The notes below the pieces were generated by a model, which was not told the origin of the DNA, did no database searches, and worked only from the letters and a program-made list of their open reading frames with translations. This document shows, piece after piece, positions 16,602 to 62,999 of a stretch of 64,000 nt of DNA. The translations under genes were made by a program, and so were the position numbers. Position 1 is the first letter of the stretch. The number at the start of each line of letters is the position of its first letter. The DNA comes from Candidatus Gastranaerophilales bacterium. Its GTDB lineage: Bacteria > Cyanobacteriota > Vampirovibrionia > Gastranaerophilales > Gastranaerophilaceae. The stretch covers positions 1-64,000 of the forward strand of contig CALUVI010000002.1 in assembly GCA_944324185.1 (NCBI GenBank), in the 5' to 3' direction.

Positions 16602-17684
16602 ATGGGAAATGATGCAGCAGAAAGAACGGAAGAAGCGACCACCCGACGGCGAACCAAGGAAAGGGAACGCGGAAATGTTTCTAAAAGCAGAGATTTAGAC
16701 GCGGCACTTGTTATGGTTGCCGGAATTGCTCTATTGGGCGTTTTTGCCGGAAGTATGTATAACAATATTACAGGTATGATGAGGGAAACCTTTTCACACC
16801 TTGATTATGCCGAGTTGGACATCTCAAATATTATGGGGCTTCTTTTACCGTACTTCAAATATCTGGCAATTATTGTATTACCGTTTTTTGTGCTGCTTGT
16901 AATTGCGGCTGTTGTAATTATAAGATTTGATGTCGGACATGTTTTCGCTCTGGAAAAAGCAAAATTTAATCTTGAAAATTTATCACCTCAGAGAATGTTT
17001 CAGAATGCAAAAAGATTGTTGAATCCTTTTGAGCCGCGTTCAATGGTTGAATTTGCCAAATCTATTATAAAAATAGTTGTTGTTGCTGTCTGCGGTTATT
17101 CGGCAATTAATAGCAGAAAAGGAGACCTCTTGGGGCTTGTAGGTCTTGAGATTCCTATTGCATTAAATATAATTATATCTATATTAATCAATATGATTGT
17201 CAATATGTGTCTTGCAATGCTGGTTCTCGGGTATCTTGATAAAAAATATCAGAATTATGAATATGAAAAATCTATCAAGATGACGAAACAGGAAATTAAG
17301 GATGAATATAAAGACACCGAAGGGGATCCAAAGGTTAAGGCAAGGATAAAATCTATTCAGATGCAGATGGCGCGGCAGAGGATGATGTCCGCTGTTCCGG
17401 GAGCAGATGTTGTTGTAACAAACCCGACACATTATGCTGTAGCTATTAAGTATGATAAGACAAAGGCTCCGGCGCCGATGGTAGTAGCAAAAGGTGTAGA
17501 TTATCTGGCATTCCAGATAAGAGAAATTGCAAAAGAGAACAATGTTCCGATAGTAGAAAACCGTCCGGTTGCCCGTGCTTTATATAATACTGTACCAATT
17601 GACGGAGTTATTCCTTCCGATATGTATGTTGCTGTCGCTGAAATTCTTGCTTATGTTTTCAGGCAAAAGAATGGTGAAATCTAG
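16602..17684 (+). CDS. flhB: Flagellar/type III export switch protein FlhB
   Basis: 360 residues. An N-terminal charged region (ERTEEATTRRRTKERERGNVSKSRDL) is typical of the family. Four membrane helices follow, then a cytosolic domain with the autocleavage site Asn274-Pro275-Thr276-His277 (VTNPTHYAVAIKYD). FlhB controls the order of substrates by self-cleavage at this site, so the switch is predicted to work. The transcript seems leaderless. It lies alone between two minus-strand blocks and is separated from flhA by the two paralogous unknown genes. Confidence 0.95.
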   Translation: MGNDAAERTEEATTRRRTKERERGNVSKSRDLDAALVMVAGIALLGVFAGSMYNNITGMMRETFSHLDYAELDISNIMGLLLPYFKYLAIIVLPFFVLLVIAAVVIIRFDVGHVFALEKAKFNLENLSPQRMFQNAKRLLNPFEPRSMVEFAKSIIKIVVVAVCGYSAINSRKGDLLGLVGLEIPIALNIIISILINMIVNMCLAMLVLGYLDKKYQNYEYEKSIKMTKQEIKDEYKDTEGDPKVKARIKSIQMQMARQRMMSAVPGADVVVTNPTHYAVAIKYDKTKAPAPMVVAKGVDYLAFQIREIAKENNVPIVENRPVARALYNTVPIDGVIPSDMYVAVAEILAYVFRQKNGEI

Positions 17685-21074: not shown

Positions 21075-23168
21075 ATGGAACTGGGCAAATTATCAAAACT
21101 TTTAAGCAATAACGATATCGTCCTTGCCATAGGCTTGGTCGTAATTGTGTGCATGATGGTAATTCCTCTTCCCGCTCCGCTACTGGATTTACTGCTTACA
21201 ATAAATATCTCGCTTGCGGTAGTAATACTTTTAGTATGTTTATATACACAGGAACCCCTTGATTATTCATCCTTTCCAACAGTGTTACTTATTGCAACTC
21301 TTTTCCGTCTGGGGTTGAACGTGAGTTCTACTCGTCTGATTCTTCTCTATGGCGAGGCGGGAAATGTTATTAATTCCTTCGGTGAATTTGTAGTCGGAGG
21401 TAATTATGTTGTAGGTGCGGTAATCTTCTGTATCCTTGTATTAATAAATTTTATGGTTATTACAGGCGGTGCAACCCGTGTTGCAGAAGTTTCTGCTAGA
21501 TTTACATTAGATAAGATGCCGGGTAAACAATTGAGTATTGATGCTGATTTAAACTCCGGACTCATTAATGAAGATCAGGCTAAAGAAAGGCGCCGGAAGT
21601 TAGAGCGTGAAACTGATTTCTACGGTACAATGGACGGTGCTTCTAAGTTCGTAAAAGGTGATGCGACTGCCGGTATTGTAATTACTGTTATAAATATTGT
21701 CGGCGGCTTGATAATAGGTGTTATCCAGCTTCATATGGATATTCAAACCGCACTTTCGACTTACACAATATTAACCGTAGGTGACGGTCTTGTATCACAG
21801 GTTCCGGCTCTTTTAATTTCTACCGCTACAGGTTTGATTGTATCAAGAGCAACCGGTAAAGATGAATCACTCTCAGAAGATATTAAAAATGAAATGTTCT
21901 CAGACCCTAGAGTGCTTGGCGTTGTATCAGGCTTAATAGGATTTATGGGTATAGTTCCGGGCATGCCGACAATACCGTTTATTTCAATTGCGGCAATTAC
22001 AGGGGCTTTTGCTTACTTTAAAATGAAGGCAAAGAAAGAACAGAAAGCTACAGAACAGGCTCAGCAGCTTGAACAGGCACAACAGGAAAAACTCGGGAAA
22101 AAAGAAAAAAGAGCAAAAGCGACAAGAGAAAGTGTCATGGAGCTTTTGAATGTTGATACTATTGAAATTGAAGTAGGTTACAGGCTTGTACAGCTTCTTA
22201 ACATTGAAATGGGAGGAGATTTGCTGGAACGTATTGCTCAAATTAGGCGCCAGATGGCTCTGGATTTAGGTATAATTCTCCCTTCCATACGTGTAAGAGA
22301 CAATTTACAGCTTTCTCCGAATTCCTACCAGATAAAACTAAAAGGCGTTGCGCTTGAATCAGGTGATGTTTATCCGGAGAGATATCTGGCTATGTGTGCA
22401 GGAGATCCTGTCGGGAACCTTGCAATAAACGGTATTCACGCAATTGAGCCGGCGTTTGGACTTCCTGCTTTGTGGATTGAGCCTAAGGATAAGGATATGG
22501 CAGAAATGTCCGGATATACTGTTGTGTCGGCTTCTGCAGTTATTTCTACACATATAACGGAAGTTATCAAAAAATGTGCTTCTGAAATTCTTTCCAGATT
22601 TGATGTTCAGCAGCTTATTGATAATCTTAAAAAAGAGGTTTCGGAAGATTATGTTAACGACATGATGAAAGATATTACAGTAGGCGATGTTCAAGTCGTT
22701 ATGCAGAATCTTTTGAAAGAGGGGGTTGCTGTTCGAGACTTGAAAACAATATTAGAGACTATAAGTCTGCAGGCTAAAATCAACAAGAATCCGAACTTCT
22801 TAACGGAACATGTTCGTCAGGCGCTTTCAAGAAATATTTGCAAACAGAATCTTGCAGATACGGGCGAACTTTATGTTATCACTCTTGCTCCGGATGTTGA
22901 AAATACAATTGCAAAAGGCGCAAGTCCTGACGGCATGAGTGTAACTTTAGATCCTTCATTTACTAAAAATATGTTTGACAAGATGAACCTTGAGCTGGAA
23001 AAAGCAATTACAGCAACTGGAAATCAGCCTGTAATTCTTTGTTCTTCTCCAATAAGGCTTTTATTCAGAAAACTTGTAGAAAGAACATATCCTCAGATTT
23101 CAATTATGTCATATAATGAAATAAGTCCGAATGTAAAAGTGCGTTCGGTTGGAATGGTTAAAACTTAA
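21075..23168 (+). CDS. flhA: Flagellar/type III export protein FlhA
   Basis: 697 residues, full family length. The N-terminal third has about eight membrane helices with the FHIPEP-family signature (TLFRLGLNVSSTRLIL) and the conserved cytosolic loop (FTLDKMPGKQLSIDADLNSGLI, RRKLERETDFYGTMDGASKFVKGD). The soluble C-terminal domain (about 350-697) forms the docking ring for chaperone-substrate complexes. FlhA energises and selects export substrates. PilZ and a small membrane protein follow at 23 bp and 17 bp and are probably cotranscribed. Confidence 0.95.
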   Translation: MELGKLSKLLSNNDIVLAIGLVVIVCMMVIPLPAPLLDLLLTINISLAVVILLVCLYTQEPLDYSSFPTVLLIATLFRLGLNVSSTRLILLYGEAGNVINSFGEFVVGGNYVVGAVIFCILVLINFMVITGGATRVAEVSARFTLDKMPGKQLSIDADLNSGLINEDQAKERRRKLERETDFYGTMDGASKFVKGDATAGIVITVINIVGGLIIGVIQLHMDIQTALSTYTILTVGDGLVSQVPALLISTATGLIVSRATGKDESLSEDIKNEMFSDPRVLGVVSGLIGFMGIVPGMPTIPFISIAAITGAFAYFKMKAKKEQKATEQAQQLEQAQQEKLGKKEKRAKATRESVMELLNVDTIEIEVGYRLVQLLNIEMGGDLLERIAQIRRQMALDLGIILPSIRVRDNLQLSPNSYQIKLKGVALESGDVYPERYLAMCAGDPVGNLAINGIHAIEPAFGLPALWIEPKDKDMAEMSGYTVVSASAVISTHITEVIKKCASEILSRFDVQQLIDNLKKEVSEDYVNDMMKDITVGDVQVVMQNLLKEGVAVRDLKTILETISLQAKINKNPNFLTEHVRQALSRNICKQNLADTGELYVITLAPDVENTIAKGASPDGMSVTLDPSFTKNMFDKMNLELEKAITATGNQPVILCSSPIRLLFRKLVERTYPQISIMSYNEISPNVKVRSVGMVKT

Positions 23169-23191: not shown

Positions 23192-23797
23192 ATGAGAGAA
23201 CTGATTAAGGATAATCAAATAGTAACAATAGTTCCGCAGGATTTTAAGAAAACAAATAAGGGGAAAGTCTTAGAAGTTTCTTCTGATGGTTTCAGAATGG
23301 AGTTAAAATTCAAACCCGAAGGCTTGATGATTAACCATATTTGCGACTTTTATTCGTTTACTGATAACGGTTATCTTTATTTTGAATCTTATATTCAGAA
23401 TCTTGAAAATAACGTTATAACAATAGCAAACCCTGTTAAACACCGCTTCTTGCAGAGACGTAAATTCACACGTATTAAGTTTATTGAAGATTTGACTTTA
23501 ACCTGCGGCGAGGTTTCGCATAAAGTCCGTACGCTTGACCTTTCAGCGGGCGGTATGAAACTCAGAACAGAAGAAAATATTGATATGGATAAGGATTATG
23601 ATGTATCAATAAAATTAAGTGATGAGCAGGTTATTAATTGCAAATACCAGCTTATAAGGGTTGAAAAAGGCGACAGTGGGTTGTATACAATATCAGGACG
23701 CTTTATCTGCTTGAGCAATATTGATAAGATGACGCTTGTTCAATTCTGTATGAAAAAAGATATGGAAAACCTTAATAAATCAAGCAATGAAGAGTAG
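23192..23797 (+). CDS. PilZ-domain protein (YcgR-like)
   Basis: 201 residues. An N-terminal YcgR-N-like beta domain (about 1-85) is followed by a PilZ domain with both c-di-GMP-binding motifs: RxxxR in QRRKFTRIKF and DxSxxG in DLSAGGMKL. Such proteins sense c-di-GMP and slow flagellar rotation or change surface behaviour. It lies 23 bp after flhA, so flagellar activity in this organism is probably under second-messenger control. Confidence 0.85.
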   Translation: MRELIKDNQIVTIVPQDFKKTNKGKVLEVSSDGFRMELKFKPEGLMINHICDFYSFTDNGYLYFESYIQNLENNVITIANPVKHRFLQRRKFTRIKFIEDLTLTCGEVSHKVRTLDLSAGGMKLRTEENIDMDKDYDVSIKLSDEQVINCKYQLIRVEKGDSGLYTISGRFICLSNIDKMTLVQFCMKKDMENLNKSSNEE

Positions 23798-32691: not shown

Positions 32692-35600
32692 CTAATTTAA
32701 TCTTTGCAGCAGTCCGAGAACACTTTCCGTTTTTAGGTTTCGTGAAGTTGACATCAAAGTTGCAGAAGCTTCCTGCAGAATCCGATATTTAATAAAATTC
32801 GACGATTCCTCAGCAACATCGGTATCTCTCAGAGTCGAACGCGTTGAAATCAGATTATTAATCTTTAAGATTTGCGCCTCAAGCACGCTGTCTAACCTGT
32901 TTATCGTTGTCCCGATATTCAAAAGCTGGTCTTGAACATCATTAAGCAGTTTATCAATATCTTCCAAACTCTCCAATGCGCCTTCTTGTGAAGAAAAGTC
33001 CACACTAAAATCAAACAAATTGAAACTAATTTCCGTTGAAATAAATTTATCTACGCCGGAGCCTATATCAACCTTAATATTAACTTCAAACGGTCTCGGG
33101 GTAATGTCTACGACGTTACTGTAAATTGTATTCACACCGTTATTTATCATTGTGTTGCGTTCGCCCGCTTCGCCGTCAACGGTGTTATTGTTACCTGAAG
33201 AGATCATAAACGCATCGCTTGAACCTCCGCCGTTTGCAGTGTTGTTATCTCCGTTAATGCTGATATCATCAATATCGGAGCCGCCCTGAATCGTATTACC
33301 ATCTCCGCGAATGGTAAACTCGTTTTCTCCGGCAGTTGATTCTATGTTGTTTCCGTCTCCGCGGACGTCGAATTCATCATCTCCCGAGCCGGTCAAAAGT
33401 TCGTTATTATCTCCTTTTACTGTAATATCCTTGTCTCCGAGGGTTGTCGTGTAATTGTTTCTGTTGCCTTCAATTACAACATCATTTTCCCCGCGGGTGT
33501 TTGTTAATGTGTTTTCGTTTCCGTAAATATTAATTGTGCCCGAAGCGTTTTGGGCGGTTAAATTGTTGTTATTGCCTTGAATCCCGATAATATTAGCGCC
33601 GCTTCCTGCTGTAATTGTGTTTGAAGAAGAGCTTACGACAAAGCGGTTGGCTCCATCACCCGCGTTAACTGTATTTGAGTCGGCATTGATTGTAATTGTG
33701 TTGTTTCCGTCGCCTGCGGTAATGTTGTTCTGCGCGCCTTCTACTACGATTTTGTTATTCCCCGCGCCGGCGTCGATGTTCGTATTATTATCAGAGTTCA
33801 CGTTAATCGTGTCGCCGCCGGCGCCACCTGTTACAGCTAGATTTGTGGATTCATTAAGAGTTATTGTATCGTCTCCGTCATCGCCGTTTAAAGAGTTGTC
33901 GGCACTGTCCATTATTAAAGTGTCATTGCCGGAAAGTCCGTTAATTATGTTATTTGAGCCCTGTTCGATTGTTATGCGGTCGGCGAGATTACTGCCGTTC
34001 ACAACATTGTTATCGCCGCGGATATTGAGAATTGCGTTTTCGTTTGAAGCGGCATTTATCTCAAAGTTTGAGCCGTTGAGGGTAATAACTCCTGTATTAG
34101 GATTCAAAGAATACTGGAGCATGTTTGAACCCGAGAGGTTGTTAGTAACGGTGTAGGTTTTGCCGTTCAGGGTAAAGGTTTGGGTTTCTCCCTGATATGT
34201 AAAAGAGATTCCGCCGGCGTTCGGGTCGCGGCTTACGTTGGATACAGAGCTTCCGGAGCCGTTTATGATGTAGTAGTTATCTCCGGTTCCGCCATCTATC
34301 ATGTTGTTGTCGCCGTCTACAACAAAATAATCATCACCCCCGCCGCCAAGGATAGTGTTATTACTGCCGGTGGCGTAAAATGTGTCATTGCCGGAGCCGC
34401 CGGAGATGCTGGCACCATCAGTATTAATATTGTAGATATTATCCCCGCCGTCGTCAGAAAGATTCGTGACTGATGCATTTATATTGTAGGTATCGTTGCC
34501 TAAACCACCGTTAATTACCCCACTTGATGTTGCATTTACTGTAATTATATCAGCGCCATCATCGCCATACACACTACCATTTGCATTAATAATAATTTCA
34601 TCGTCACCATCACCGCCATAACCAATAGAAGCCGTATTAACCAATGTTATTTTGTCATTTCCGCCTTGACCATAAATCTTAGCGCCATATCCATAGCACC
34701 AAATATTGTCCTCAAGATTACCGCCATAAAAAGTAGTACTCGTTCCATAAACTTTAACATTATGTTTTACATCAGTCTGCCCTGTGATAGCTGCATAATA
34801 ACCTGCAAATGTAATTTCATCTGTTACTGCGTTATATGAATATAGCATTTTTGAATTACGTAAAGTATCTGTGCTCTTAACTGTATAACTAATTCCATTA
34901 ATAGTATCATTTGATTCTAGAACCTGTGCATTATCAGAATCACCAAAACCGCAGATAAAATTATCTTTGCCGGAATTTGATAGAATTTTATTTGTACCGG
35001 ATTTTGCATAGACACTATTTTGAGAACCAGATATAGTTACATTAGTTTGTCCGGTTCCTGCTTCTGCATAACTATAGCTTCCTGTAAAAGTAATATTATC
35101 GACCCCGCTCCCTCCATAATAGAAACTAAAGTTTCCTATGTTAATTTCGTTGTCTCCGGCACCGCCATAACATATTCCTTGCGACTGTAAAGTTACCTTA
35201 TTGCTGCCATTTCCACAATAAACAATATTGTTATAAGTTTTAGCTAATATTGTGTCACCTTGATTGCCTCCATAAAAAGTTATATTGTTGGAGGCAAGTG
35301 CTACATTATGTTTTTTATCTAATGCACCTTTTATAGCAATTTCAGCACCATTTGAAGTTGTAAATATTATTTGACCGGTATCATCTATTTTATAAATTAA
35401 AGTTTGTGCACTATTACCATTGGTAACAATATAATCAATCCCGTTAATATTTAATGTTTTTGTTTCATTTTTTACAAAATCTACAGAACCGGCATTAGCT
35501 TTATCCACATTTACAAGAGTCATTGAAGAGTCAATATTACCATTAATAATATTTGTACCGGAATTTCCATTTATATCTAAGTTTTTTAAATTTTCTTTTA

Positions 35601-36783
35601 AATAGAAGGTGTCATCACCATCACCACCTTTTATCTTTGCATTAGAAGAAAAATTTATATTAAAAATATCATTTCCATTACCGCCATCTACTGTCTGTCC
35701 ATAGACATTCACATTAAGAACATCATCGCCATCTCCGCCATATATTGAATTAATTCCACTACCTTGTAACGTTAAAATATCATTACCAGCTTCACCATAA
35801 CCAAATGAATGATCTCCGTTTATTGTAATTTTATCATTACCATCACCGCCATACAAATAATTGAATGGTCCTGACATTTCTGTTAAAATATCGTCCTTAG
35901 AGCCGCCATAAAAAGATGTATAAGTTCCATTTATAACAATATTGTGCGCAACATCATCCTGACCTCTAATCTCAAAGTTTGAGGCTAATAGAGTTAATTC
36001 TCCCGTTAATGTATCTTTAGAATAAGATAAGTCGTTTGCTGTAGTTAGCTTATTTCTAACAGTATACTGAACTCCATCAATTGTGATGGTTTTAGTCTCA
36101 TTGGCTCCAAAGGATTCAGCACCCTCGATGTCTGCTGCCTGTGGAGACGGGGTGTTGTTTGATTGTGTGGTTGAGATTTGACTTGTGGTTGAAGGCGCCG
36201 CAGGCGCCTTACCTGCGGTCAAAGAAAAAGCCGATGCGGAGGCAGTCGTTTTACCCACGCCGGCAGGATATATATCATATGTTGTATTATTTACTTTTGC
36301 TGCTTTTGTAAGACGATTTATAGCTTTTGTTGATATTGAAGCCGCTCCAGTGTTTTTATCTGCCGGCTTTGAATACAAATTTAAACCGTTATACTCCATC
36401 GTCTCACGGAGCTGAGCAATCTGTTCGATTATTTCATCCGCTTCTGATTGCATGGCATCACGTGATTCAGCGCCATAATTGCCGTTAGATGCCTGAGTTG
36501 CAAGCGCTCTCAATCTTTGCAATAATTCTTCTATCTCCTCAAGACCGCCCTGCGCTGTCTGCAGTAAAGCCAGCCCGTCGCCGGCATTTTGTTGTACCTG
36601 CAGCATTGAAGAGATTTCTTTGTTTAAGTCAGTTATTATGGAATAATTCGCAGCGTTATCTTTTGCGTGGTTGACTTTAAATCCCGTTGTCATCCGCTCT
36701 ATGGAGCTATTTAAGCCGATAGTGTTATCATAAAGTGTACGCTGGAGGATTAAATCCGCAACATCAGTTCCGAAGGTAATCAT
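32692..36783 (-). CDS. Giant modular flagellin-like protein with beta-roll arrays
   Basis: 1363 residues. The ends are flagellin: residues 1-140 (SSIERMTTGFKVNHAKDNAA, LLQTAQGGLEEIEELLQRL) and 1265-1363 (INRLDSVLEAQI, RSTLRDTDVAEESSNF, SVLGLLQRL) form D0/D1. In place of D2/D3 it carries four units, each a roughly 65-residue header (228-293, 438-503, 624-687, 866-930; e.g. INGIDYIVTNG ... FYGGN) followed by a beta-roll array with GGxGxD or GDxNxI repeats (to 430, 620, 848 and 1225). It should form the filament or a minor, very thick filament; the Asp/Asn-rich loops suggest calcium binding. An AAAGGAGGTGGC ribosome site precedes the ATG. No sigma-28 promoter was found within 1 kb, where a repeat mosaic lies instead. 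Confidence 0.85.
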   Translation of the reverse strand: MITFGTDVADLILQRTLYDNTIGLNSSIERMTTGFKVNHAKDNAANYSIITDLNKEISSMLQVQQNAGDGLALLQTAQGGLEEIEELLQRLRALATQASNGNYGAESRDAMQSEADEIIEQIAQLRETMEYNGLNLYSKPADKNTGAASISTKAINRLTKAAKVNNTTYDIYPAGVGKTTASASAFSLTAGKAPAAPSTTSQISTTQSNNTPSPQAADIEGAESFGANETKTITIDGVQYTVRNKLTTANDLSYSKDTLTGELTLLASNFEIRGQDDVAHNIVINGTYTSFYGGSKDDILTEMSGPFNYLYGGDGNDKITINGDHSFGYGEAGNDILTLQGSGINSIYGGDGDDVLNVNVYGQTVDGGNGNDIFNINFSSNAKIKGGDGDDTFYLKENLKNLDINGNSGTNIINGNIDSSMTLVNVDKANAGSVDFVKNETKTLNINGIDYIVTNGNSAQTLIYKIDDTGQIIFTTSNGAEIAIKGALDKKHNVALASNNITFYGGNQGDTILAKTYNNIVYCGNGSNKVTLQSQGICYGGAGDNEINIGNFSFYYGGSGVDNITFTGSYSYAEAGTGQTNVTISGSQNSVYAKSGTNKILSNSGKDNFICGFGDSDNAQVLESNDTINGISYTVKSTDTLRNSKMLYSYNAVTDEITFAGYYAAITGQTDVKHNVKVYGTSTTFYGGNLEDNIWCYGYGAKIYGQGGNDKITLVNTASIGYGGDGDDEIIINANGSVYGDDGADIITVNATSSGVINGGLGNDTYNINASVTNLSDDGGDNIYNINTDGASISGGSGNDTFYATGSNNTILGGGGDDYFVVDGDNNMIDGGTGDNYYIINGSGSSVSNVSRDPNAGGISFTYQGETQTFTLNGKTYTVTNNLSGSNMLQYSLNPNTGVITLNGSNFEINAASNENAILNIRGDNNVVNGSNLADRITIEQGSNNIINGLSGNDTLIMDSADNSLNGDDGDDTITLNESTNLAVTGGAGGDTINVNSDNNTNIDAGAGNNKIVVEGAQNNITAGDGNNTITINADSNTVNAGDGANRFVVSSSSNTITAGSGANIIGIQGNNNNLTAQNASGTINIYGNENTLTNTRGENDVVIEGNRNNYTTTLGDKDITVKGDNNELLTGSGDDEFDVRGDGNNIESTAGENEFTIRGDGNTIQGGSDIDDISINGDNNTANGGGSSDAFMISSGNNNTVDGEAGERNTMINNGVNTIYSNVVDITPRPFEVNIKVDIGSGVDKFISTEISFNLFDFSVDFSSQEGALESLEDIDKLLNDVQDQLLNIGTTINRLDSVLEAQILKINNLISTRSTLRDTDVAEESSNFIKYRILQEASATLMSTSRNLKTESVLGLLQRLN

Positions 36784-36810
36784 GCCACCTCCTTTGGGTT
36801 GTATCCCTCA

Positions 36811-36904
36811 CCTCTTGTGAGGAGAACGGATTTGCGGACGGATTGAGCCAACAGGAGCTTTGCTCCGTGGGCGAAACTCCGAGAGCGTGGAGCAAAGCCA
36901 AGAC
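36811..36904. repeat. Repeat module, copy 1
   Basis: It shares CTTGTGagGAgaaCGGATTTGCGGACGGA-type sequence, then ACAGGAGCT-TGCTCCG and GCGTGGAGCAAA, with copy 2 at 37131-37263. Copy 2 carries about 40 extra bases in the middle. The shared GGAGC..GCTCC segments can fold as hairpins. Confidence 0.6.
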
Positions 36905-36980
36905 GGGTAGAATTTCAAGTTGAGCCGGGGCGAAACTTAGAAATTCGGGTGAGGGGTCAAGTTCTTTGTTAGTTGGCAAG

Positions 36981-37001
36981 ATCCCGAAACAAGTTCGGGA
37001 T
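36981..37001. repeat. Dispersed palindrome ATCCCGAA-N5-TTCGGGAT
   Basis: A perfect 8-bp stem with a 5-nt loop, followed by GAC. This 'TCCCGAAACAAGTTCGGGATGAC' type is a widespread intergenic palindrome in bacterial genomes. Confidence 0.6.
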
Positions 37002-37035
37002 GACAGCATTTTGGAAGTGTCTGTTATCGGGTTTG

Positions 37036-37101
37036 AGAATGTTTTAGAGATTCTTCGCCCCTGAATTGCCATCGGGCTCTGAATGACTGCAATCCGGTTT
37101 A
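37036..37101. repeat. Inverted partial copy of the MITE-like element
   Basis: On the minus strand it reads GATTGCAGTCATTC, then GCAATTCAGGGGCGAAG and AATCTCTAAAA. This follows 27594-27646 (GATTGCAGTCATTCTGAA ... AGGGGTGAAGAATCTCT) with few differences. Only one terminal repeat is kept. Confidence 0.6.
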
Positions 37102-37130
37102 ACATTAATTGAGCGCGGCTGCCTCTGCCC

Positions 37131-37263
37131 CCCTTGTGGGGGAAGCGGATTTGCGGACGGACGACACGAACGTTAGTGAGGTAGTCCGGATAGCGAGCAA
37201 AACGAACGGACAGGAGCTCTGCTCCGAAAGTGAGATTTTGCGAGCGTGGAGCAAATCTAAGAC
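37131..37263. repeat. Repeat module, copy 2
   Basis: The second, longer copy of the module at 36811-36904; see that entry for the shared segments. The extra middle part contains GACACGAACGTTAGTGAGG. Confidence 0.6.
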
Positions 37264-37624
37264 AGTACCCGAAGGGGGTAGGGGGGTAGTGTTTGGAGTG
37301 ATGATTTTTCAGTCCCTCACCCGAATTTCTAAGCTCGCACGGCTCGCTAACAAATTCTTCCCTCTTCCCAAATGAGCGAGGGAAATGCGCTAATTGAATG
37401 ACACAAGCGCATGCCTTCCACGGATAAATACATCCTGCTTGTAGTATTACATACCAAACTAAAATATTTACCCCGGGAAGGTTAGGATGGGGATTAGTTT
37501 TGTCTGAACCCCACCCGCATTTGTAGCTCACTGGCGTTCGCACAACTGCGACCTCTCCAACCTGAGAGGTCGGCGCGATTATTGGGCATGGGGGAACGCC
37601 GGTTTTTAATTGCAAAATTCGTTC

Positions 37625-37665
37625 CGGATTGCTTCGGGATAAATGGACATTCCCTAGCAATGACG
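37625..37665. repeat. Inverted half copy of the REP-like repeat
   Basis: The reverse complement contains CGTCATTGCTAGGG and CCCGAAGCAATCCGG, corresponding to 27388-27427. The other half of the element is missing. Confidence 0.6.
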
Positions 37666-37752
37666 TGATTTTTAATTCCTTCTCAACTTCCAAACTACTA
37701 AACTTTTTAATTGTCTTAGAAGGTCTTAATCTAGCTCTGTGACTGGATTTTG

Positions 37753-37764
37753 CCCCCCCCCCCC
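37753..37764. repeat. Homopolymeric C12 tract
   Basis: Twelve consecutive C in otherwise mixed sequence. Such tracts slip during replication. It lies about 970 bp upstream of the flagellin start and in no supported gene, so any effect would be on transcription or spacing. Confidence 0.7.
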
Positions 37765-37942
37765 GAAGGGAAAGGCGGCTCATTGGTGTGCTTTGAACAC
37801 ATGAATATTCTAAAATTTTTCCTTTTAGAAATCCTTATCAACAACATGATATGACATATCCTTATATCCATTATATATTATATATTCCACATGTTCATAA
37901 GGTTATAACACTTTTTTTTATTAATTTTACAAATATTTACAT

Positions 37943-56771: not shown

Positions 56772-59700
56772 ATGGCAGATATAAATAATTTTACGGAGAT
56801 TGCAGAGAACTTTGATACTATTAAAACCTTGCTTAATTCAATAAGAGCACAGGGTATACTTAATACATCCGATGTAGATAAACTTTTAGCCGGCATTAAT
56901 GCTAAGCTGGAAAAGTTGAATACCGAGGAGGATATTGATTTAATTAAAATCTTCCTGTCGGATTTAAAGAAGAATTTAGAAGAGCGTCATAGTGTTCTGC
57001 TCTCAAAATTTGGCGCAATAGAATCTCTTTTCTCCAATCTGTTGAAAAATAGTTCTGAAACATTAAAATCAAGTGAAGTAAAAGAACTGTTTGATATTGT
57101 TGCTACAAATCTTTCGGTATTTTCAAGAGAAGTTGTTTCCCAGAAAGAAACTCTTTCCGATATAACCATGCGCTTAGATGCTATGCGTTCGGATGATTCG
57201 CAGAAAAAAGAAATCGTTAAAAATATTTCTTTCTTAAAAAATGATCTCGAAAGGCTTACTAACGGGTTTGATTCAATTGTACTAAGCTTAAATGAAAACT
57301 TTAAAAACGTAATAAAATCGATATCAGGCATTGATCCGTCTGAACTCGTAATTAAGTTCGGAAAAGAGCTTGAAGATATAAATAATTCTTCTAATACTAT
57401 ATTGTCAGCTATTCAGCTTCTGGATAAAAAAAATGAACGTATAGAAGAAGTGATGAAAGGACTGGCAACTCAGGAGGATTTAAACAGCACTAAAAAGTGG
57501 ATAAGTGATTTAGCTGCTCAAGAGCAGTTACTATCTCAGTCAGTGGATAATTTATCGGATAAATACTATAAAATAGACAATCTTGCGGAAAAAATCGATG
57601 CATCGGTAGAAATTATCGCAGGTTTAAAGACAATAATTTCTGATAAAGATGAGCAGAGTGCAAGTGCTGTAATTGACAGGTTATGTCAGCTAGAAGAACT
57701 TATAAAAAATGTTTCTTCTGATACTGAGTTTAATGACTTTAAACATTCCTTAGAGCAAGCTCTAAATGATATTTTTGAAGCGTCAGCAGTATTGAAGAGC
57801 GCTTTTGATGCTTCAAATAATGAATTAAAGGAAATAAAAACTTCGATTCAAACCTTAGATATAAATGTTAATTTCAAAAGTCTTGCTGCTGATTTAAGTA
57901 AATCAGAGCAGAGTGTAAAAGAGCATGTAAGTGTTGAAGGTGATAAAATAATCCAACTGGTTGATGTTAATGCAACCAGAACTCTGAATGAGCTTTCAAA
58001 CAATGCTGAAAATCTCTCAGAAAAATTGTCTGAGGCACAGACTCTTATATCCGGGCTGTGTGAAAAAAGTTTTTCGGAGCTTCAGGAAAATCTGACCGGT
58101 TTAAAGAGTATTGTTTCGCAGATTGATGAAAACAATGTTTCTGCAAATAATGCAATATTCTCAAATATAACTGACAGACTTGCTCTTTTTGAGAGCAGTT
58201 TAAAAAACTCTCTTGAAAAACAGGAGGATTATGTTGCAAATTCATCAAGCCTGCTCATTGAGCAAATTAACAATATAAAAGATTTATCAGGAGTTCTTGA
58301 TTATAAACTGGATTCTTCTGTTATAGAAATTAATAACTCAAAAACCGAATTGGAAGGGCTGAAGAAATCTGTAGAAGAGATGCTTGCTCTTGATTTTGTA
58401 AATAAGGTAAATGATTTTAAAGTAGACTTATATGCTGTAAAACAGGAGCTGACAGCACATTTTGAAACTACATCCAATGAATTTAGTGAAAAATATTCAA
58501 ATGATTTATTCAGTAAATATGAACTTTTAATAAGTAAATTAGATATTGTTGAAGATGAGATAAAGCAGGCTCAGACAGATACTTTAACATCTTTAAAAAG
58601 TATACTCGATAATGTTTCATCTTCTCTTGTGGATATATTGTCTTATGTAAGCTCTCCAAAAGATATAAACACGGATAATATAGAAGCAAAACTGGATAAT
58701 ATCGCAAGAACTGTAAGTGACAACAGTCTGAGTTATATAGATAATGTCAAAGATACAGTGGATATTATAAGGACTCAGGTTGATAATAATATCAAAAGTT
58801 TACAGGAAGATACTTACAAACAGTTGCAGTTTATCAGTTCTTCTATAGAAACATCAAGCGAAGTTATAAGAGATGATATTAAAAATTCTTATAATAAGCT
58901 GCTTGAGGTTCAAGATAGGTTTGAAGAGATAAAAGAGACTATAAAACTCAATAATAACTCTCTTTCAACTAATATACACGGTGTTGTGGAAACAGCAATT
59001 ACGTTGAAAGATGATTTCGATACCAGACTTTCATCTCTTAAGAATGCAATTTTAGACAAAGTAGCAGATTTTCAGAAGGAGTTTACGTGTGAAAATGCTG
59101 ATAAAATTAGTGAAATAAAATTTGCTTCTGAATCATTACATGCGAAGCAGATTCAAAATACACAGGAGATAAAAGATGAACTAAGGGGCGAAATTGCACG
59201 TATTACTGGTTCTCTCAAATTGTGTATAGAAGAGCTCGCAGAACAGCTTTCAGGTACTTCAGCCAAAGTGGACAGTGTTAATCATGATATAGTAAATCTT
59301 GTTAAAAATGATTTCGGTTCGCAGGTTGAATTGTCTGTAGAAAATGTGAATACAAGTCTGCATGAATTTTCTGATGCGGTAGGGGAAAAGTTAGATGAAA
59401 CTGTTTCTAAAATTAATGATTTAGGCGATACGGTTAATGCTCTTTCCAACAATACAACAACGGCATTAACTTCTACTCTTGCTAAAATTTTAGATAATTT
59501 CGTGTCATTAAAAGCTCTTATGGGTAATTTTAATGATAAGACAGCGGAAGATTTGCAAAAATCGGCTGAAACGATAATTGGAGAGTTTACAAAACTAAGA
59601 GATAAAATAGAAGTAGTTGATACGACTATTGATGAAGATCTTACACGTCAGTTGTCTATTTTGGAATCTAATTTTGAAGCATTAAACCATAATTTGGCGA

Positions 59701-62700
59701 ATTTCTTTACACAGTCTAATGATGCAATAGGCAGCAGTATCAATACAGGTCTCGTTAATGTTTCCGAAGCCTTAAGAGTCACAGTGGTTAAAGGTCTGGA
59801 ACAGTACAAAAATCAAATAGATGAACTTTTTAACAGTATTTCTGATGAAAACGGCAAACATATAAAATTAGTTGAAGCAAAAGTTATTGAATTAAATGAT
59901 ATTCTGCAAAAAACAATGAATGAACAGAATATTAAAGCTGCTGGTACTTTATCGGAGATGACTGAAAGTTTAAAAGATATAATATCTCAAAATATAGAAA
60001 CCGCTGCTGCTGATTATAATGCCTTGAAGGACAATCTGGATAATTTTGCTAAATATATTGAAACACAAAATGTAACAACAGCAGAACAGCTCAAGTTTAA
60101 ATTGAGTGATATTGCAAAATTAATTGATTCAGGTGTAAATGCGCAGACTCAGGAGATAACTAAAAGGTTTAATGAGCTGATTCTTGAAGTTTCGGAAATT
60201 TCCGGTTCTACAAGCGGTTTGAATAATGAAATAACAAACAGAGTATCCGTTATTTCAGATGAGATTAATTTATTAAAAACAAATCTTACCGAGTTTTTCA
60301 CCGGCAGCTCAGCACAGGTTTTAAACAAATTAGATACAATTTCCGGTGAAATGTCAGATGAATGCAGCAACCTTTTAGGTTCTATCGTAAAAACAGTTAC
60401 TGATTTACAGGATAAAATTAATACATTATTTGAACAAAATTCTTTGAATCTGATAACGCAGTTTAGTAATACAGGTTCAAAATATATTGAAGAATTAAAT
60501 TTAAAAGCTCTGGAATTAAAAACAGCTTTTGAATCTTTGAATGACAGATTAGATAAAGATGAAATTTCAAGAATGAATGTATTTCAATCTCAATTAAATG
60601 AATTGAGTAATTCATTCAATGTATTGATAGAAGAAGCTAAGAATGTTACAAAAACGGAAGTGTCATCAATATCAGAGACGCTTATTAACAGCAGCAGAGA
60701 AGCTATGTTTGATGTTGAACAGGCAATCGAAGATAAAGTAAACTCAATACTGGCAACAAGTGCTGATATTGCAGCCGGTGAGCTTCAATCTATGGAAGCG
60801 TTTGCAAATAAAATCCTAAATGCTGTTAAAACATCACAGGAAATTACAAATAACTGCAAGGATTTTATTGCTGATTTCATAAGAGCAGAATTAGAGACAA
60901 TATCTGATAATATTGAAAAAGAAACGGATGTTCTGGTAAAAGATTTATTGGAACAAATGAGTCTGTTAAAAGATTTTCAACGTGATGAGATTAGCAAACT
61001 AACAACTCAGCTTGAAGGTGTGGTTGAGGATTGTATTTATAATAATGTCAATGAGCTTAAATCATATATAGATGTAAAGAGTGATACATCAATACTTAAC
61101 GGTAAACTGGACAGCATAAGTTCTGACTTGAGTAAAACAGCCGAGGACATGCTTGCTGCATCTAATAAATTGTTAACAGCAAGTGTTTTTGAGAATACTA
61201 TTTCCGATATGAAATCTGCTAATAATCTGCTCATTTCATCAATGGCAGATAATTTGAACTCACAAATTCAAACTTTCGTAAAAAACAGCTTACAAAAAGA
61301 TATTGACGATAAGTTTAATTTGTTTGATAAAAAGTTCGTAGATACTGTTGTAGATAAGTACGAAGAAATAAAAGTGATTTCATCCGCGTATAATAACGCT
61401 TTTGAAACTATACAAGCATCAGTAGAAGGTTTATTGTCAAAATTTACGGAATCAAAAGAAGAAATCTACAAAACACTCCTTTCTGTTGTAAACGGGATAA
61501 GCGGTGAAGTCGATGAATTAAACCTTAGTTTTGCAGATTTAAAAGCTCAAATGTTAAATAAATCTTTTGATGAAGCGTTTCAGGCATCAATTAACAAGCA
61601 AATCTCCAGCATTGAGAGCCTCGTTAATGAACAGCTCGGGTATATAGAAGATATTAGTGAACTTTGTTGCAGTAATCTTCCTGAACTGACAGAGATGAGT
61701 GCTCTGGTGAAATACAATGTAATCCAATCATTGACTGATTTGAATACGAGGTTGGATAATCAGGACATTTCAATACAAAAAGAGTTGACTTCACTGAAAA
61801 CTGATGTAATTACGCAGTTTTTGAATATATTTAATCAGATTTCTTTTGTTGCTGAGCAGGAAGAAATACTTGATTTCATACAGGAAAAACATTCTGAGTT
61901 AATTTCTGTTTTAAGTCATATTGTAACTGCAGCAGATGATATAGAAAATGTAAAAGACAATGTTGCGTTATTAGATTTAAAAGTGGATACTGTAAAGAGC
62001 GATATTGATCAGATAAATGAAAAAATTACGTCAATTATATCTTCAAACGGAGAAGTTGACTATGTCTACAGTTTACAAGATCTGGAGTCAGATATTGCAA
62101 ATTTAAGATTGACTTTAAATGAATTAAAAGATAATAATAATTCAAAAGAACTTGAAGAGCTTATAACTTCTACCAATAATATTTATTCACTGGTAGAGTC
62201 TTTGAAAAACGAACTGCCGAAATTTGATAGTGAAGAATTCAAGAAAGATTTCGAAGCTCTAAATGAAGATATAGTAAGCATAAGCACCCGAACCAACAAA
62301 CTTATCCTTGCTTCAGATGAATCATATAAAACTTTGCAGGAAAATCTGCAGGACTTCAAGCTTGTAATTAATGATTTGGATGAAAGAACCCGTAATTTTG
62401 CCCGTGAAGCCGGTATTGACAGAATTGATAATAAACTCGGTGTAATAAATTCTATGATACAAAACGGAGCTAGAACAAATCAGGTGTTCAATCAGGTATT
62501 TGAATATCTTGCAGAATGGGTAGATAATGCAGGTGCACAGATTGCGGCTATATCTGATAAGGTTGAGACACTGGATGATATAGGTCAAATTAAAGTAATG
62601 CTGGAAGATTTAAAAGCAGAGGCAGAAGATGATTCTGACAGCACAGAATTGATTGAGGCTTTAAGTAATGTTTTTGAAAAACAGGCAAAGAAAATAAGTT

Positions 62701-62999
62701 CTTTGGAAGCCAAGCTTGACAGAGTAATTGTAGAAACTACAATTAGTAATAAGAATAACAAAGTTGATTTGGCTCCTTTTGAAGAAACTTTAAACAGATT
62801 TTTGGTTGCAATTGATGATAAAATGGTATCTCAGCAATCTAAAATAGATTCGCTGGAGTCTAAGTTAGCGGATGTTATGTCCATGATTAACCCGAAAGAC
62901 ACAGCCCAGTTAACGAAAAAAGTTGGCGGAATGGACAGGCAAATTGCGAAATTAAATAAAAGTATTGAAAAAATAGCGTCACATGTTGTTGAAAAATAA
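56772..62999 (+). CDS. Giant coiled-coil protein (2075 residues)
   Basis: 2075 residues with no recognised domain, no signal peptide and no membrane segment. Almost the whole chain is heptad-like helix, e.g. LKSSEVKELFDIVATNLSVF, INDLGDTVNALSNNTTTALT, and the end IAKLNKSIEKIASHVVEK. Cys and Trp are rare. It resembles the helical signalling regions of chemoreceptors and apolipoprotein-like or SMC-like coils, but has no ATPase or receptor parts. At full extension such a coil would be roughly 0.3 micrometre long, so a cytoskeletal, tethering or scaffold role is plausible. The start has only a weak GAG ribosome site. The next gene begins inside its 3' end. Confidence 0.75.
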   Translation: MADINNFTEIAENFDTIKTLLNSIRAQGILNTSDVDKLLAGINAKLEKLNTEEDIDLIKIFLSDLKKNLEERHSVLLSKFGAIESLFSNLLKNSSETLKSSEVKELFDIVATNLSVFSREVVSQKETLSDITMRLDAMRSDDSQKKEIVKNISFLKNDLERLTNGFDSIVLSLNENFKNVIKSISGIDPSELVIKFGKELEDINNSSNTILSAIQLLDKKNERIEEVMKGLATQEDLNSTKKWISDLAAQEQLLSQSVDNLSDKYYKIDNLAEKIDASVEIIAGLKTIISDKDEQSASAVIDRLCQLEELIKNVSSDTEFNDFKHSLEQALNDIFEASAVLKSAFDASNNELKEIKTSIQTLDINVNFKSLAADLSKSEQSVKEHVSVEGDKIIQLVDVNATRTLNELSNNAENLSEKLSEAQTLISGLCEKSFSELQENLTGLKSIVSQIDENNVSANNAIFSNITDRLALFESSLKNSLEKQEDYVANSSSLLIEQINNIKDLSGVLDYKLDSSVIEINNSKTELEGLKKSVEEMLALDFVNKVNDFKVDLYAVKQELTAHFETTSNEFSEKYSNDLFSKYELLISKLDIVEDEIKQAQTDTLTSLKSILDNVSSSLVDILSYVSSPKDINTDNIEAKLDNIARTVSDNSLSYIDNVKDTVDIIRTQVDNNIKSLQEDTYKQLQFISSSIETSSEVIRDDIKNSYNKLLEVQDRFEEIKETIKLNNNSLSTNIHGVVETAITLKDDFDTRLSSLKNAILDKVADFQKEFTCENADKISEIKFASESLHAKQIQNTQEIKDELRGEIARITGSLKLCIEELAEQLSGTSAKVDSVNHDIVNLVKNDFGSQVELSVENVNTSLHEFSDAVGEKLDETVSKINDLGDTVNALSNNTTTALTSTLAKILDNFVSLKALMGNFNDKTAEDLQKSAETIIGEFTKLRDKIEVVDTTIDEDLTRQLSILESNFEALNHNLANFFTQSNDAIGSSINTGLVNVSEALRVTVVKGLEQYKNQIDELFNSISDENGKHIKLVEAKVIELNDILQKTMNEQNIKAAGTLSEMTESLKDIISQNIETAAADYNALKDNLDNFAKYIETQNVTTAEQLKFKLSDIAKLIDSGVNAQTQEITKRFNELILEVSEISGSTSGLNNEITNRVSVISDEINLLKTNLTEFFTGSSAQVLNKLDTISGEMSDECSNLLGSIVKTVTDLQDKINTLFEQNSLNLITQFSNTGSKYIEELNLKALELKTAFESLNDRLDKDEISRMNVFQSQLNELSNSFNVLIEEAKNVTKTEVSSISETLINSSREAMFDVEQAIEDKVNSILATSADIAAGELQSMEAFANKILNAVKTSQEITNNCKDFIADFIRAELETISDNIEKETDVLVKDLLEQMSLLKDFQRDEISKLTTQLEGVVEDCIYNNVNELKSYIDVKSDTSILNGKLDSISSDLSKTAEDMLAASNKLLTASVFENTISDMKSANNLLISSMADNLNSQIQTFVKNSLQKDIDDKFNLFDKKFVDTVVDKYEEIKVISSAYNNAFETIQASVEGLLSKFTESKEEIYKTLLSVVNGISGEVDELNLSFADLKAQMLNKSFDEAFQASINKQISSIESLVNEQLGYIEDISELCCSNLPELTEMSALVKYNVIQSLTDLNTRLDNQDISIQKELTSLKTDVITQFLNIFNQISFVAEQEEILDFIQEKHSELISVLSHIVTAADDIENVKDNVALLDLKVDTVKSDIDQINEKITSIISSNGEVDYVYSLQDLESDIANLRLTLNELKDNNNSKELEELITSTNNIYSLVESLKNELPKFDSEEFKKDFEALNEDIVSISTRTNKLILASDESYKTLQENLQDFKLVINDLDERTRNFAREAGIDRIDNKLGVINSMIQNGARTNQVFNQVFEYLAEWVDNAGAQIAAISDKVETLDDIGQIKVMLEDLKAEAEDDSDSTELIEALSNVFEKQAKKISSLEAKLDRVIVETTISNKNNKVDLAPFEETLNRFLVAIDDKMVSQQSKIDSLESKLADVMSMINPKDTAQLTKKVGGMDRQIAKLNKSIEKIASHVVEK

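What the first reader, a model, noticed from the sequence alone, without database searches (positions are those of the whole stretch)
32692..36783. Giant flagellin with four header + beta-roll modules
Flagellin D0/D1 ends enclose about 1000 residues built from four repeats of a roughly 65-residue header, each followed by RTX-like GGxGxD or GDxNxI arrays. Beta-rolls are normally found in type I-secreted toxins. In a filament subunit they would give a calcium-dependent, very thick surface layer, possibly for adhesion or immune shielding. Export of so large a subunit through the flagellar channel is itself notable.
Basis: partly seen in the sequence, partly recalled or inferred. Interest (0 to 1): 0.75.

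Follow-up and report, generated by a model that had tools for sequence, protein, structure and literature searches.

The report
Giant flagellin with four beta-roll modules
A gut bacterium (order Gastranaerophilales) encodes a flagellin, the building block of the bacterial tail, about three times the usual length, whose outer part is four capped rods of a calcium-roll type; relatives carry one to twenty such rods, so it is a real, conserved and adjustable coat design rather than an oddity of one genome.

Summary
ORF 32692-36783 (-) encodes 1363 aa with Flagellin_N (E 3e-29) and Flagellin_C (5e-9) ends enclosing four ~70-aa headers, each followed by an 18-residue-period array. AlphaFold models the insert as all-beta (pLDDT 87.5; module 1 alone 94.7). 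Best solved match of module 1 is the one-sided Ca-binding roll of the Marinomonas antifreeze adhesin; of the whole insert, CyaA RTX. The rolls are therefore non-canonical: one calcium-type turn per coil, rich in modules 1 and 3, nearly lost in module 4. The four-module layout is conserved by position in 17 flagellins of five Gastranaerophilales genera; related frames hold one header (616 aa) to twenty (3249 aa). The genome has FlhA, FlhB, FliS and eight further flagellins. Giant flagellins making thick filaments are known (1020 and 1190 aa), so size and export are not new; the module is new to the flagellin literature I could search. Nine leaders of the family, counting this one, carry a 10-12 G tract, a candidate phase-variation switch. 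Filament incorporation, calcium binding and function remain untested. Verdict: new variant of a known kind, interesting.

The parts
36364..36783 (-). Flagellin N-terminal D0/D1 (aa 1-140)
   Evidence: Pfam Flagellin_N E 3.1e-29; 56-81% identical to full-length orthologues
36109..36363 (-). Low-complexity linker D1 to module 1 (aa 141-225)
   Evidence: 17-52% identity to orthologues; residues before the first header modelled with low confidence
35896..36108 (-). Header 1 (aa 226-296)
   Evidence: Header profile E 1.0e-29; model pLDDT about 97
35476..35895 (-). Beta-roll array 1, about 8 coils, 4 strict GGxGxD
   Evidence: (calcium-turn Asp98 and Asp116 of the module invariant in 18 sequences)
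35260..35475 (-). Header 2 (aa 437-508)
   Evidence: Header profile E 5.7e-22
34927..35259 (-). Beta-roll array 2, about 6 coils, 1 strict GGxGxD
34714..34926 (-). Header 3 (aa 620-690)
   Evidence: Header profile E 3.7e-25
34189..34713 (-). Beta-roll array 3, about 10 coils, 4 strict GGxGxD; length 169-181 aa in 17 family members
33979..34188 (-). Header 4 (aa 866-935), the most conserved header (71-84% identity)
   Evidence: Header profile E 2.6e-24; position-4 group is one clade, support 97/76
33118..33978 (-). Beta-solenoid array 4, about 16 coils, mostly GDNNxI type, 1 strict GGxGxD
   Evidence: DUF3060 24.0 bits
32695..33117 (-). Flagellin C-terminal D1/D0 (aa 1223-1363)
   Evidence: Pfam Flagellin_C E 5.4e-9; 55-77% identity
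36788..36795 (-). Shine-Dalgarno AAAGGAGG, 4 nt before the ATG
   Evidence: sequence
36800..37750 (-). Leader island built of dispersed genomic repeats; the 339-aa ORF called here is not a gene
   Evidence: 104 matches in the own genome
37753..37764 (-). G12 tract in the leader; 10-11 G in eight orthologous leaders
   Evidence: a 9-G match is expected 0.04 times per window
37870..37897 (-). Promoter-like TGAACATGTGGAATATATAATATATAAT (inferred)
   Evidence: no excess over shuffles; the composite motif occurs 4 times in the genome, its reversed control 0 times
16602..17684 (+). FlhB, flagellar export
   Evidence: Pfam Bac_export_2 E 1.9e-118
21075..23168 (+). FlhA, flagellar export gate
   Evidence: TIGR01398 851 bits, over its cut-off
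23192..23797 (+). PilZ-domain protein, possible flagellar brake
   Evidence: Pfam PilZ E 6e-15

Best explanation
It is a flagellin whose outer domain (D2/D3) has been replaced by four tandem rods. Each rod is a header, which probably acts as an N-terminal cap plus first coils, followed by a one-sided beta-roll of 6-16 coils. Proposed working: the chain leaves the cell through the flagellar type III gate (FlhA/FlhB, with FliS), unfolded because the rolls lack calcium in the cytosol. Outside, calcium drives folding of at least modules 1 and 3, D0/D1 adds to the filament under the cap, and the rods form a thick, Asn/Gly/Asp-rich coat. In a genome with eight other flagellins it is probably an alternative or minor subunit that changes surface and stiffness, perhaps switched on and off through the leader G tract. 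Shown: flagellin ends, module layout, conservation, predicted fold, presence of export genes, G tract. Inferred: filament incorporation, calcium folding, coat function, phase variation.
For: Both flagellin ends; the residues usually named for TLR5 recognition are kept at R90, L94 and E114, with A at 93 (sequence; residue roles from general knowledge). FlhA, FlhB, FliS and eight further flagellins plus an FlgL candidate in the genome. Orthologues with the same four modules. Headers group by position (6 groups need 10 label changes, shuffled mean 58.5), so the layout predates these lineages. Array 3 is 169-181 aa in all 17 four-module proteins. Model pLDDT 87.5 and 94.7. Foldseek: whole insert to CyaA RTX751 E 1.4e-6; module 1 to the Ca-dependent antifreeze roll 3p4g prob 1.00, TM 0.50, with sequence support E 1.5e-4. 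That roll has one calcium turn per 19-residue coil and is thought to be a random coil in the cytosol (PMC6891781). Asp at two calcium turns of module 1 invariant in 18 sequences.
Against: No proteomic, microscopic or calcium-binding data. Array 4, the longest, lacks most calcium turns. Foldseek E-value for module 1 alone is 0.03. The header occurs in a minority of the order (41 of 383 genomes), so the gene is dispensable. Two header-bearing proteins of relatives are not flagellins, so the module is not tied to filaments.
Confidence: 0.6

Rival explanations
1. It is exported through the flagellar gate but not built into the filament: a secreted adhesin or decoy that keeps flagellin ends only as export and chaperone signals.
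For: The same module occurs in two non-flagellin proteins of relatives; non-structural secreted flagellins are known (Campylobacter FlaC, abstract of PMC5466977); the genome has eight other flagellins to build the filament.
Against: The whole D0/D1 core is conserved at 55-81%, not just the signal ends; C-terminal D0 residues are invariant among family members; giant flagellins of 1020 aa do form filaments (PMC6248924).
Confidence: 0.2
2. It is a mainly mechanical device: a calcium-independent beta-solenoid sleeve that stiffens the filament or forms an outer-domain sheath for swimming in mucus, with calcium turns as a vestige.
For: Array 4 has lost most calcium turns yet is better conserved (52-75%) than arrays 1 and 2 (31-45%); outer-domain sheaths modulate motility of bacteria from viscous environments (PMC8931119).
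Against: Two calcium-turn Asp and many turn Gly are invariant in module 1 across 18 sequences; strict GGxGxD persists in all 18 family members listed.
Confidence: 0.18
3. It is a type I-secreted RTX protein, or a chimeric assembly artefact.
For: RTX-like repeats; weak or partial HMM matches to RTX families.
Against: The C terminus is flagellin D0, where a type I signal would sit; the same gene is intact in at least ten other genomes.
Confidence: 0.02

Closest known systems
Giant flagellins of Bermanella marisrubri and Oleibacter marinus (PMC6248924)
   Same: Over 1000 aa, D0/D1 ends, large tandem-duplicated insert, stepwise domain duplication; there filaments of at least 30 nm
   Different: Their DE/DX inserts are a different domain; two repeats, not four to twenty; no beta-roll reported; those organisms have only that flagellin
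Region IV of the Marinomonas primoryensis RTX adhesin MpIBP/MpAFP (PDB 3p4g)
   Same: One calcium turn per 18-19-residue coil, other edge calcium-free; Foldseek prob 1.00 for module 1
   Different: Type I-secreted cell-anchored adhesin with one continuous roll; here four capped rolls inside a flagellin
RTX blocks of CyaA (7usl, 6sus, 5cvw)
   Same: Beta-rolls in several capped blocks; best whole-insert fold match E 1.4e-6
   Different: Canonical two-sided nonapeptides and type I C-terminal signal; no enzyme, acylated or pore part here
Proteolytic flagellins (flagellinolysins, PMC5595980)
   Same: A functional foreign domain inserted in the flagellin outer region
   Different: Metalloprotease insert; no enzyme family was found here
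GLUG-insert flagellin of the same genome (L011, 756 aa)
   Same: Large repetitive insert, shared repeat-island leader
   Different: GLUG repeats, no header, no beta-roll motif

Membership tests
Bacterial flagellin (FliC type) | N-terminal D0/D1 helices | tested here: met
   PF00669 102 bits, cut-off 26.6
Bacterial flagellin (FliC type) | C-terminal D1/D0 helices | tested here: met
   PF00700 36.7 bits, cut-off 23
Bacterial flagellin (FliC type) | Flagellin rather than FlgL | tested here: met
   Flagellin models up to 112 bits, FlgL models 50-55 bits; the genome has a separate FlgL candidate at C36
Bacterial flagellin (FliC type) | Flagellar export gate and chaperone in the genome | tested here: met
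   FlhA, FlhB, FliS
Bacterial flagellin (FliC type) | Polymerised in the filament | not testable with these tools
   Needs proteomics or EM
Giant flagellin | More than 1000 aa | tested here: met
   1363 aa
Giant flagellin | Thickened filament | not testable with these tools
   Estimate only, 30-38 nm
RTX protein (PF00353, type I secreted) | Tandem two-sided GGxGxDxUx nonapeptides | tested here: not met
   One calcium turn per 18-residue coil; PF00353 22.0 bits under cut-off 23
RTX protein (PF00353, type I secreted) | C-terminal type I secretion signal | tested here: not met
   The C terminus is flagellin D1/D0
RTX protein (PF00353, type I secreted) | Calcium-driven folding | not testable with these tools
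   Needs biophysics
One-sided calcium beta-roll (MpIBP region IV type) | 18-19-residue coils, calcium turn on one edge | tested here: met
   Period 18; Foldseek prob 1.00, TM 0.50; good for modules 1 and 3, weaker for 2, poor for 4
DUF3060 | Profile match over cut-off | tested here: inconclusive
   24.0 bits against 23.1, aa 1086-1143

The most novel reading that the evidence does not exclude
A flagellar filament with a calcium-gated, phase-variable, length-adjustable coat: roll modules stay disordered in the cytosol, so subunits of up to about 3250 residues pass the flagellar channel; calcium folding at the tip helps pull the chain out, like the ratchet proposed for type I RTX secretion; a leader G tract switches the coat on and off; and module number (1 to 20) sets coat thickness.
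Probability: 0.25. Interest if true: 0.82.

Novelty: new variant of a known kind. Interest (0 to 1): 0.62.

Why it matters
Giant flagellins are known, but how a chain of 1000-3000 extra residues is kept export-competent in a channel of about 2 nm is open. A calcium roll, unfolded inside and folded outside, is a natural answer that can be tested in a laboratory flagellar system. The family also offers a graded natural series (1, 3, 4, 5-6 and 20 modules) for relating insert size to filament thickness, and it concerns hardly studied gut bacteria whose flagellins are thought to be seen by TLR5 (PMC3787301). The leader G tracts would add phase-variable flagellin coats to a lineage for which I found no report of phase variation.

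Tried and rejected
Type I-secreted toxin: rejected, flagellin C terminus. FlgL or another axial protein: rejected by scores. Chimeric assembly: rejected, orthologues in many other MAGs. Phage or plasmid origin: no relative among viral contigs; a single weak RTX-type hit among plasmids. Sigma-28 promoter with the textbook consensus: none in 1.2 kb, nor clearly before the other flagellins. Rfam element in the leader: none. The ORF 36764-37783 as a gene: rejected, it is repeat mosaic. General poly-G tracts of the genome: most belong to another dispersed element (Gn-(T)AAATGTATT...), not to surface-gene leaders, so the flagellin-leader tract must be judged on its own conservation.

Full report
CHECK. 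The ORF is as described: 32692-36783, minus strand, 1363 aa. Pfam finds Flagellin_N (E 3.1e-29) and Flagellin_C (E 5.4e-9); NCBIfam flagellin models beat FlgL models about two to one in bits; many solved flagellins match both ends. Four headers of about 70 aa begin at aa 228, 439, 624 and 866. A profile built from headers of this and related proteins finds only these four in the whole genome, each at E below 1e-21. The arrays hold 13 GxGxD, 10 GGxGxD and 10 G[DN]xNx[ILVT]; 2000 shuffles gave means of 1.9, 0.3 and 1.5 and never reached the observed numbers. Glycine/Asx and hydrophobic autocorrelation peak at lag 18.

WHERE. The closest named records are Candidatus Gastranaerophilales MAGs, the gut branch of Melainabacteria/Vampirovibrionia. 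The 1.97-Mb assembly has nine flagellins including this one, plus an FlgL candidate, and FliS and FlhA. FlhB, FlhA and a PilZ protein lie in the window itself at 16.6-23.8 kb. A second FlhA-like gene at C40 scores 698 bits against the FlhA cut-off of 772 and 585 against the SctV cut-off of 692, and a third fragment lies at C55; their role is open.

FOLD. AlphaFold on the whole insert with eight sequences gives pLDDT 87.5, almost only strands; module 1 with 18 sequences gives 94.7 and pTM 0.90. Against the PDB the whole insert's best match is CyaA RTX751 (E 1.4e-6; TM is low, as expected for several rods in uncertain relative orientation). The single module's best match is 3p4g, the calcium-dependent antifreeze roll (prob 1.00, TM 0.50, 22% identity, E 0.03), with sequence support (E 1.5e-4). 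That domain binds calcium on one edge only, with 19-residue turns XGTGND-XUXU-GGXUXG-XUX (PMC6891781). The coil here, for example YGGDGND-KITI-NGDHSFG, has the same plan. Strict motifs per array are 4, 1, 4, 1 in this protein. In module 1, Asp98 and Asp116 (module numbering) of calcium turns are invariant in 18 sequences. Calcium is thus well supported by pattern for modules 1 and 3 and weakly elsewhere; it is not measured. That the header is a cap is my inference from its place before each roll and its longer strands; no coordinates were at hand.

FAMILY. Full-length relatives share 52-65% with the window protein. Counting this one, 17 proteins of five genera have four headers, with array lengths of 131-158, 115-158, 169-181 and 232-307 aa (two of them have frames cut at the N terminus). 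Headers group by position rather than by protein: position 4 is one clade (97/76), and all six groups need 10 label changes against 58.5 in shuffles; the rows are short and many forks are unresolved. A relative in another family of the order has one header of position-4 type (616 aa). One relative has a 3249-aa open frame with 20 headers and both flagellin ends (E 2e-25 and 3e-15 with the family models; Pfam alone reports the N end); its headers mostly cluster with each other, so it is a separate expansion. Two genomes have frames of about 2600 aa with five headers. In a sample of the order 41 of 383 genomes have the header (15 of 52 genera); in a phylum sample all hits fall in the same order. 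Two header-bearing proteins lack flagellin ends. No relative was found in viral contigs, and only one weak hit in plasmids.

MECHANISM. Shown: the ends, modules, predicted fold, conservation and export genes. Inferred: export unfolded through the flagellar gate; calcium folding outside; polymerisation by D0/D1. RTX rolls are known to be disordered without calcium and to act as a Brownian ratchet in type I secretion (PMC6891781, citing Bumba et al. 2016). Carrying that idea over to the flagellar tip is my proposal. A volume estimate with a 6-nm core radius gives 30-38 nm diameter at 50-30% packing for a homopolymer; the same sum gives 26-32 nm for the 1020-aa B. marisrubri protein, measured at 30 nm or more (PMC6248924). 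With eight other flagellins present a minor or alternative subunit is likelier than a homopolymer.

LEADER. A run of 12 G lies at 37753-37764, 981 nt before the ATG. Orthologues G015C8, G025, G022C1, G011a, G352C13, G352C6, G212C6 and G263C1 have 10-11 G at 50-240 nt before their ATG; one relative (G003) has an interrupted run. A random 250-nt leader would hold such a run with a chance of about 0.0015. In this genome the space between the run and the start codon is filled by a mosaic of dispersed repeats (104 matches). Similar repeat islands abut two other long-insert flagellin genes (C18, C29), and a contig end at C17 shows the same promoter-like motif plus G14. Slippage of such runs is a classic switch in Campylobacter and Neisseria (general knowledge; for example PMC5084427). 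No length variation within a species could be tested.

NOVELTY. Giant flagellins and thick filaments are known (PMC6248924), as are functional inserts (PMC5595980). I found no paper on beta-roll or RTX-type flagellins in the open-access library searched; subscription papers were not searched, and I did not check UniProt for longer flagellins. I rate it a new variant of a known kind.

Noticed in passing
window 37753-37764 (-) and leaders of orthologues: Conserved 10-12 G tract, typically TTCG(n)TA, in the leader of beta-roll flagellin genes; candidate phase-variation switch. 8 G stand before the GLUG flagellin at C18.
   Followed up: partly
window 36800-37750; also C18 and C29 of the own genome: Mosaic of dispersed repeats directly upstream of three of nine flagellin genes; more than 100 partial copies genome-wide. 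Rough chance estimate for three of nine is 0.001.
   Followed up: partly
own genome, about 20 mostly intergenic places: A second dispersed element: 9-12 G followed by (T)AAATGTATT...GGTAAGTGAAACTAC, cause unknown.
   Followed up: no
L009:656-4369 (+): Another giant flagellin (1237 aa) in the same genome with repeated Thr-rich and Flagellin-IN-like segments and no header.
   Followed up: partly
L111:1291-11037 (-), relative G120: 3249-aa open frame with flagellin ends and 20 header modules.
   Followed up: yes
L041, relative G032 C16: 2085-aa flagellin with GLUG-like and Thr-rich repeats, no header.
   Followed up: no
own genome C40 and C55: Second FlhA-like gene below both FlhA and SctV cut-offs, and a third fragment; possibly a second export system.
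   Followed up: no
L104 and L106 (relatives G145, G343): Header + roll module in proteins without flagellin ends, so the module is portable.
   Followed up: partly
window 56772-62999 (+): 2075-aa protein with only a weak apolipoprotein match (below cut-off); function unknown.
   Followed up: no
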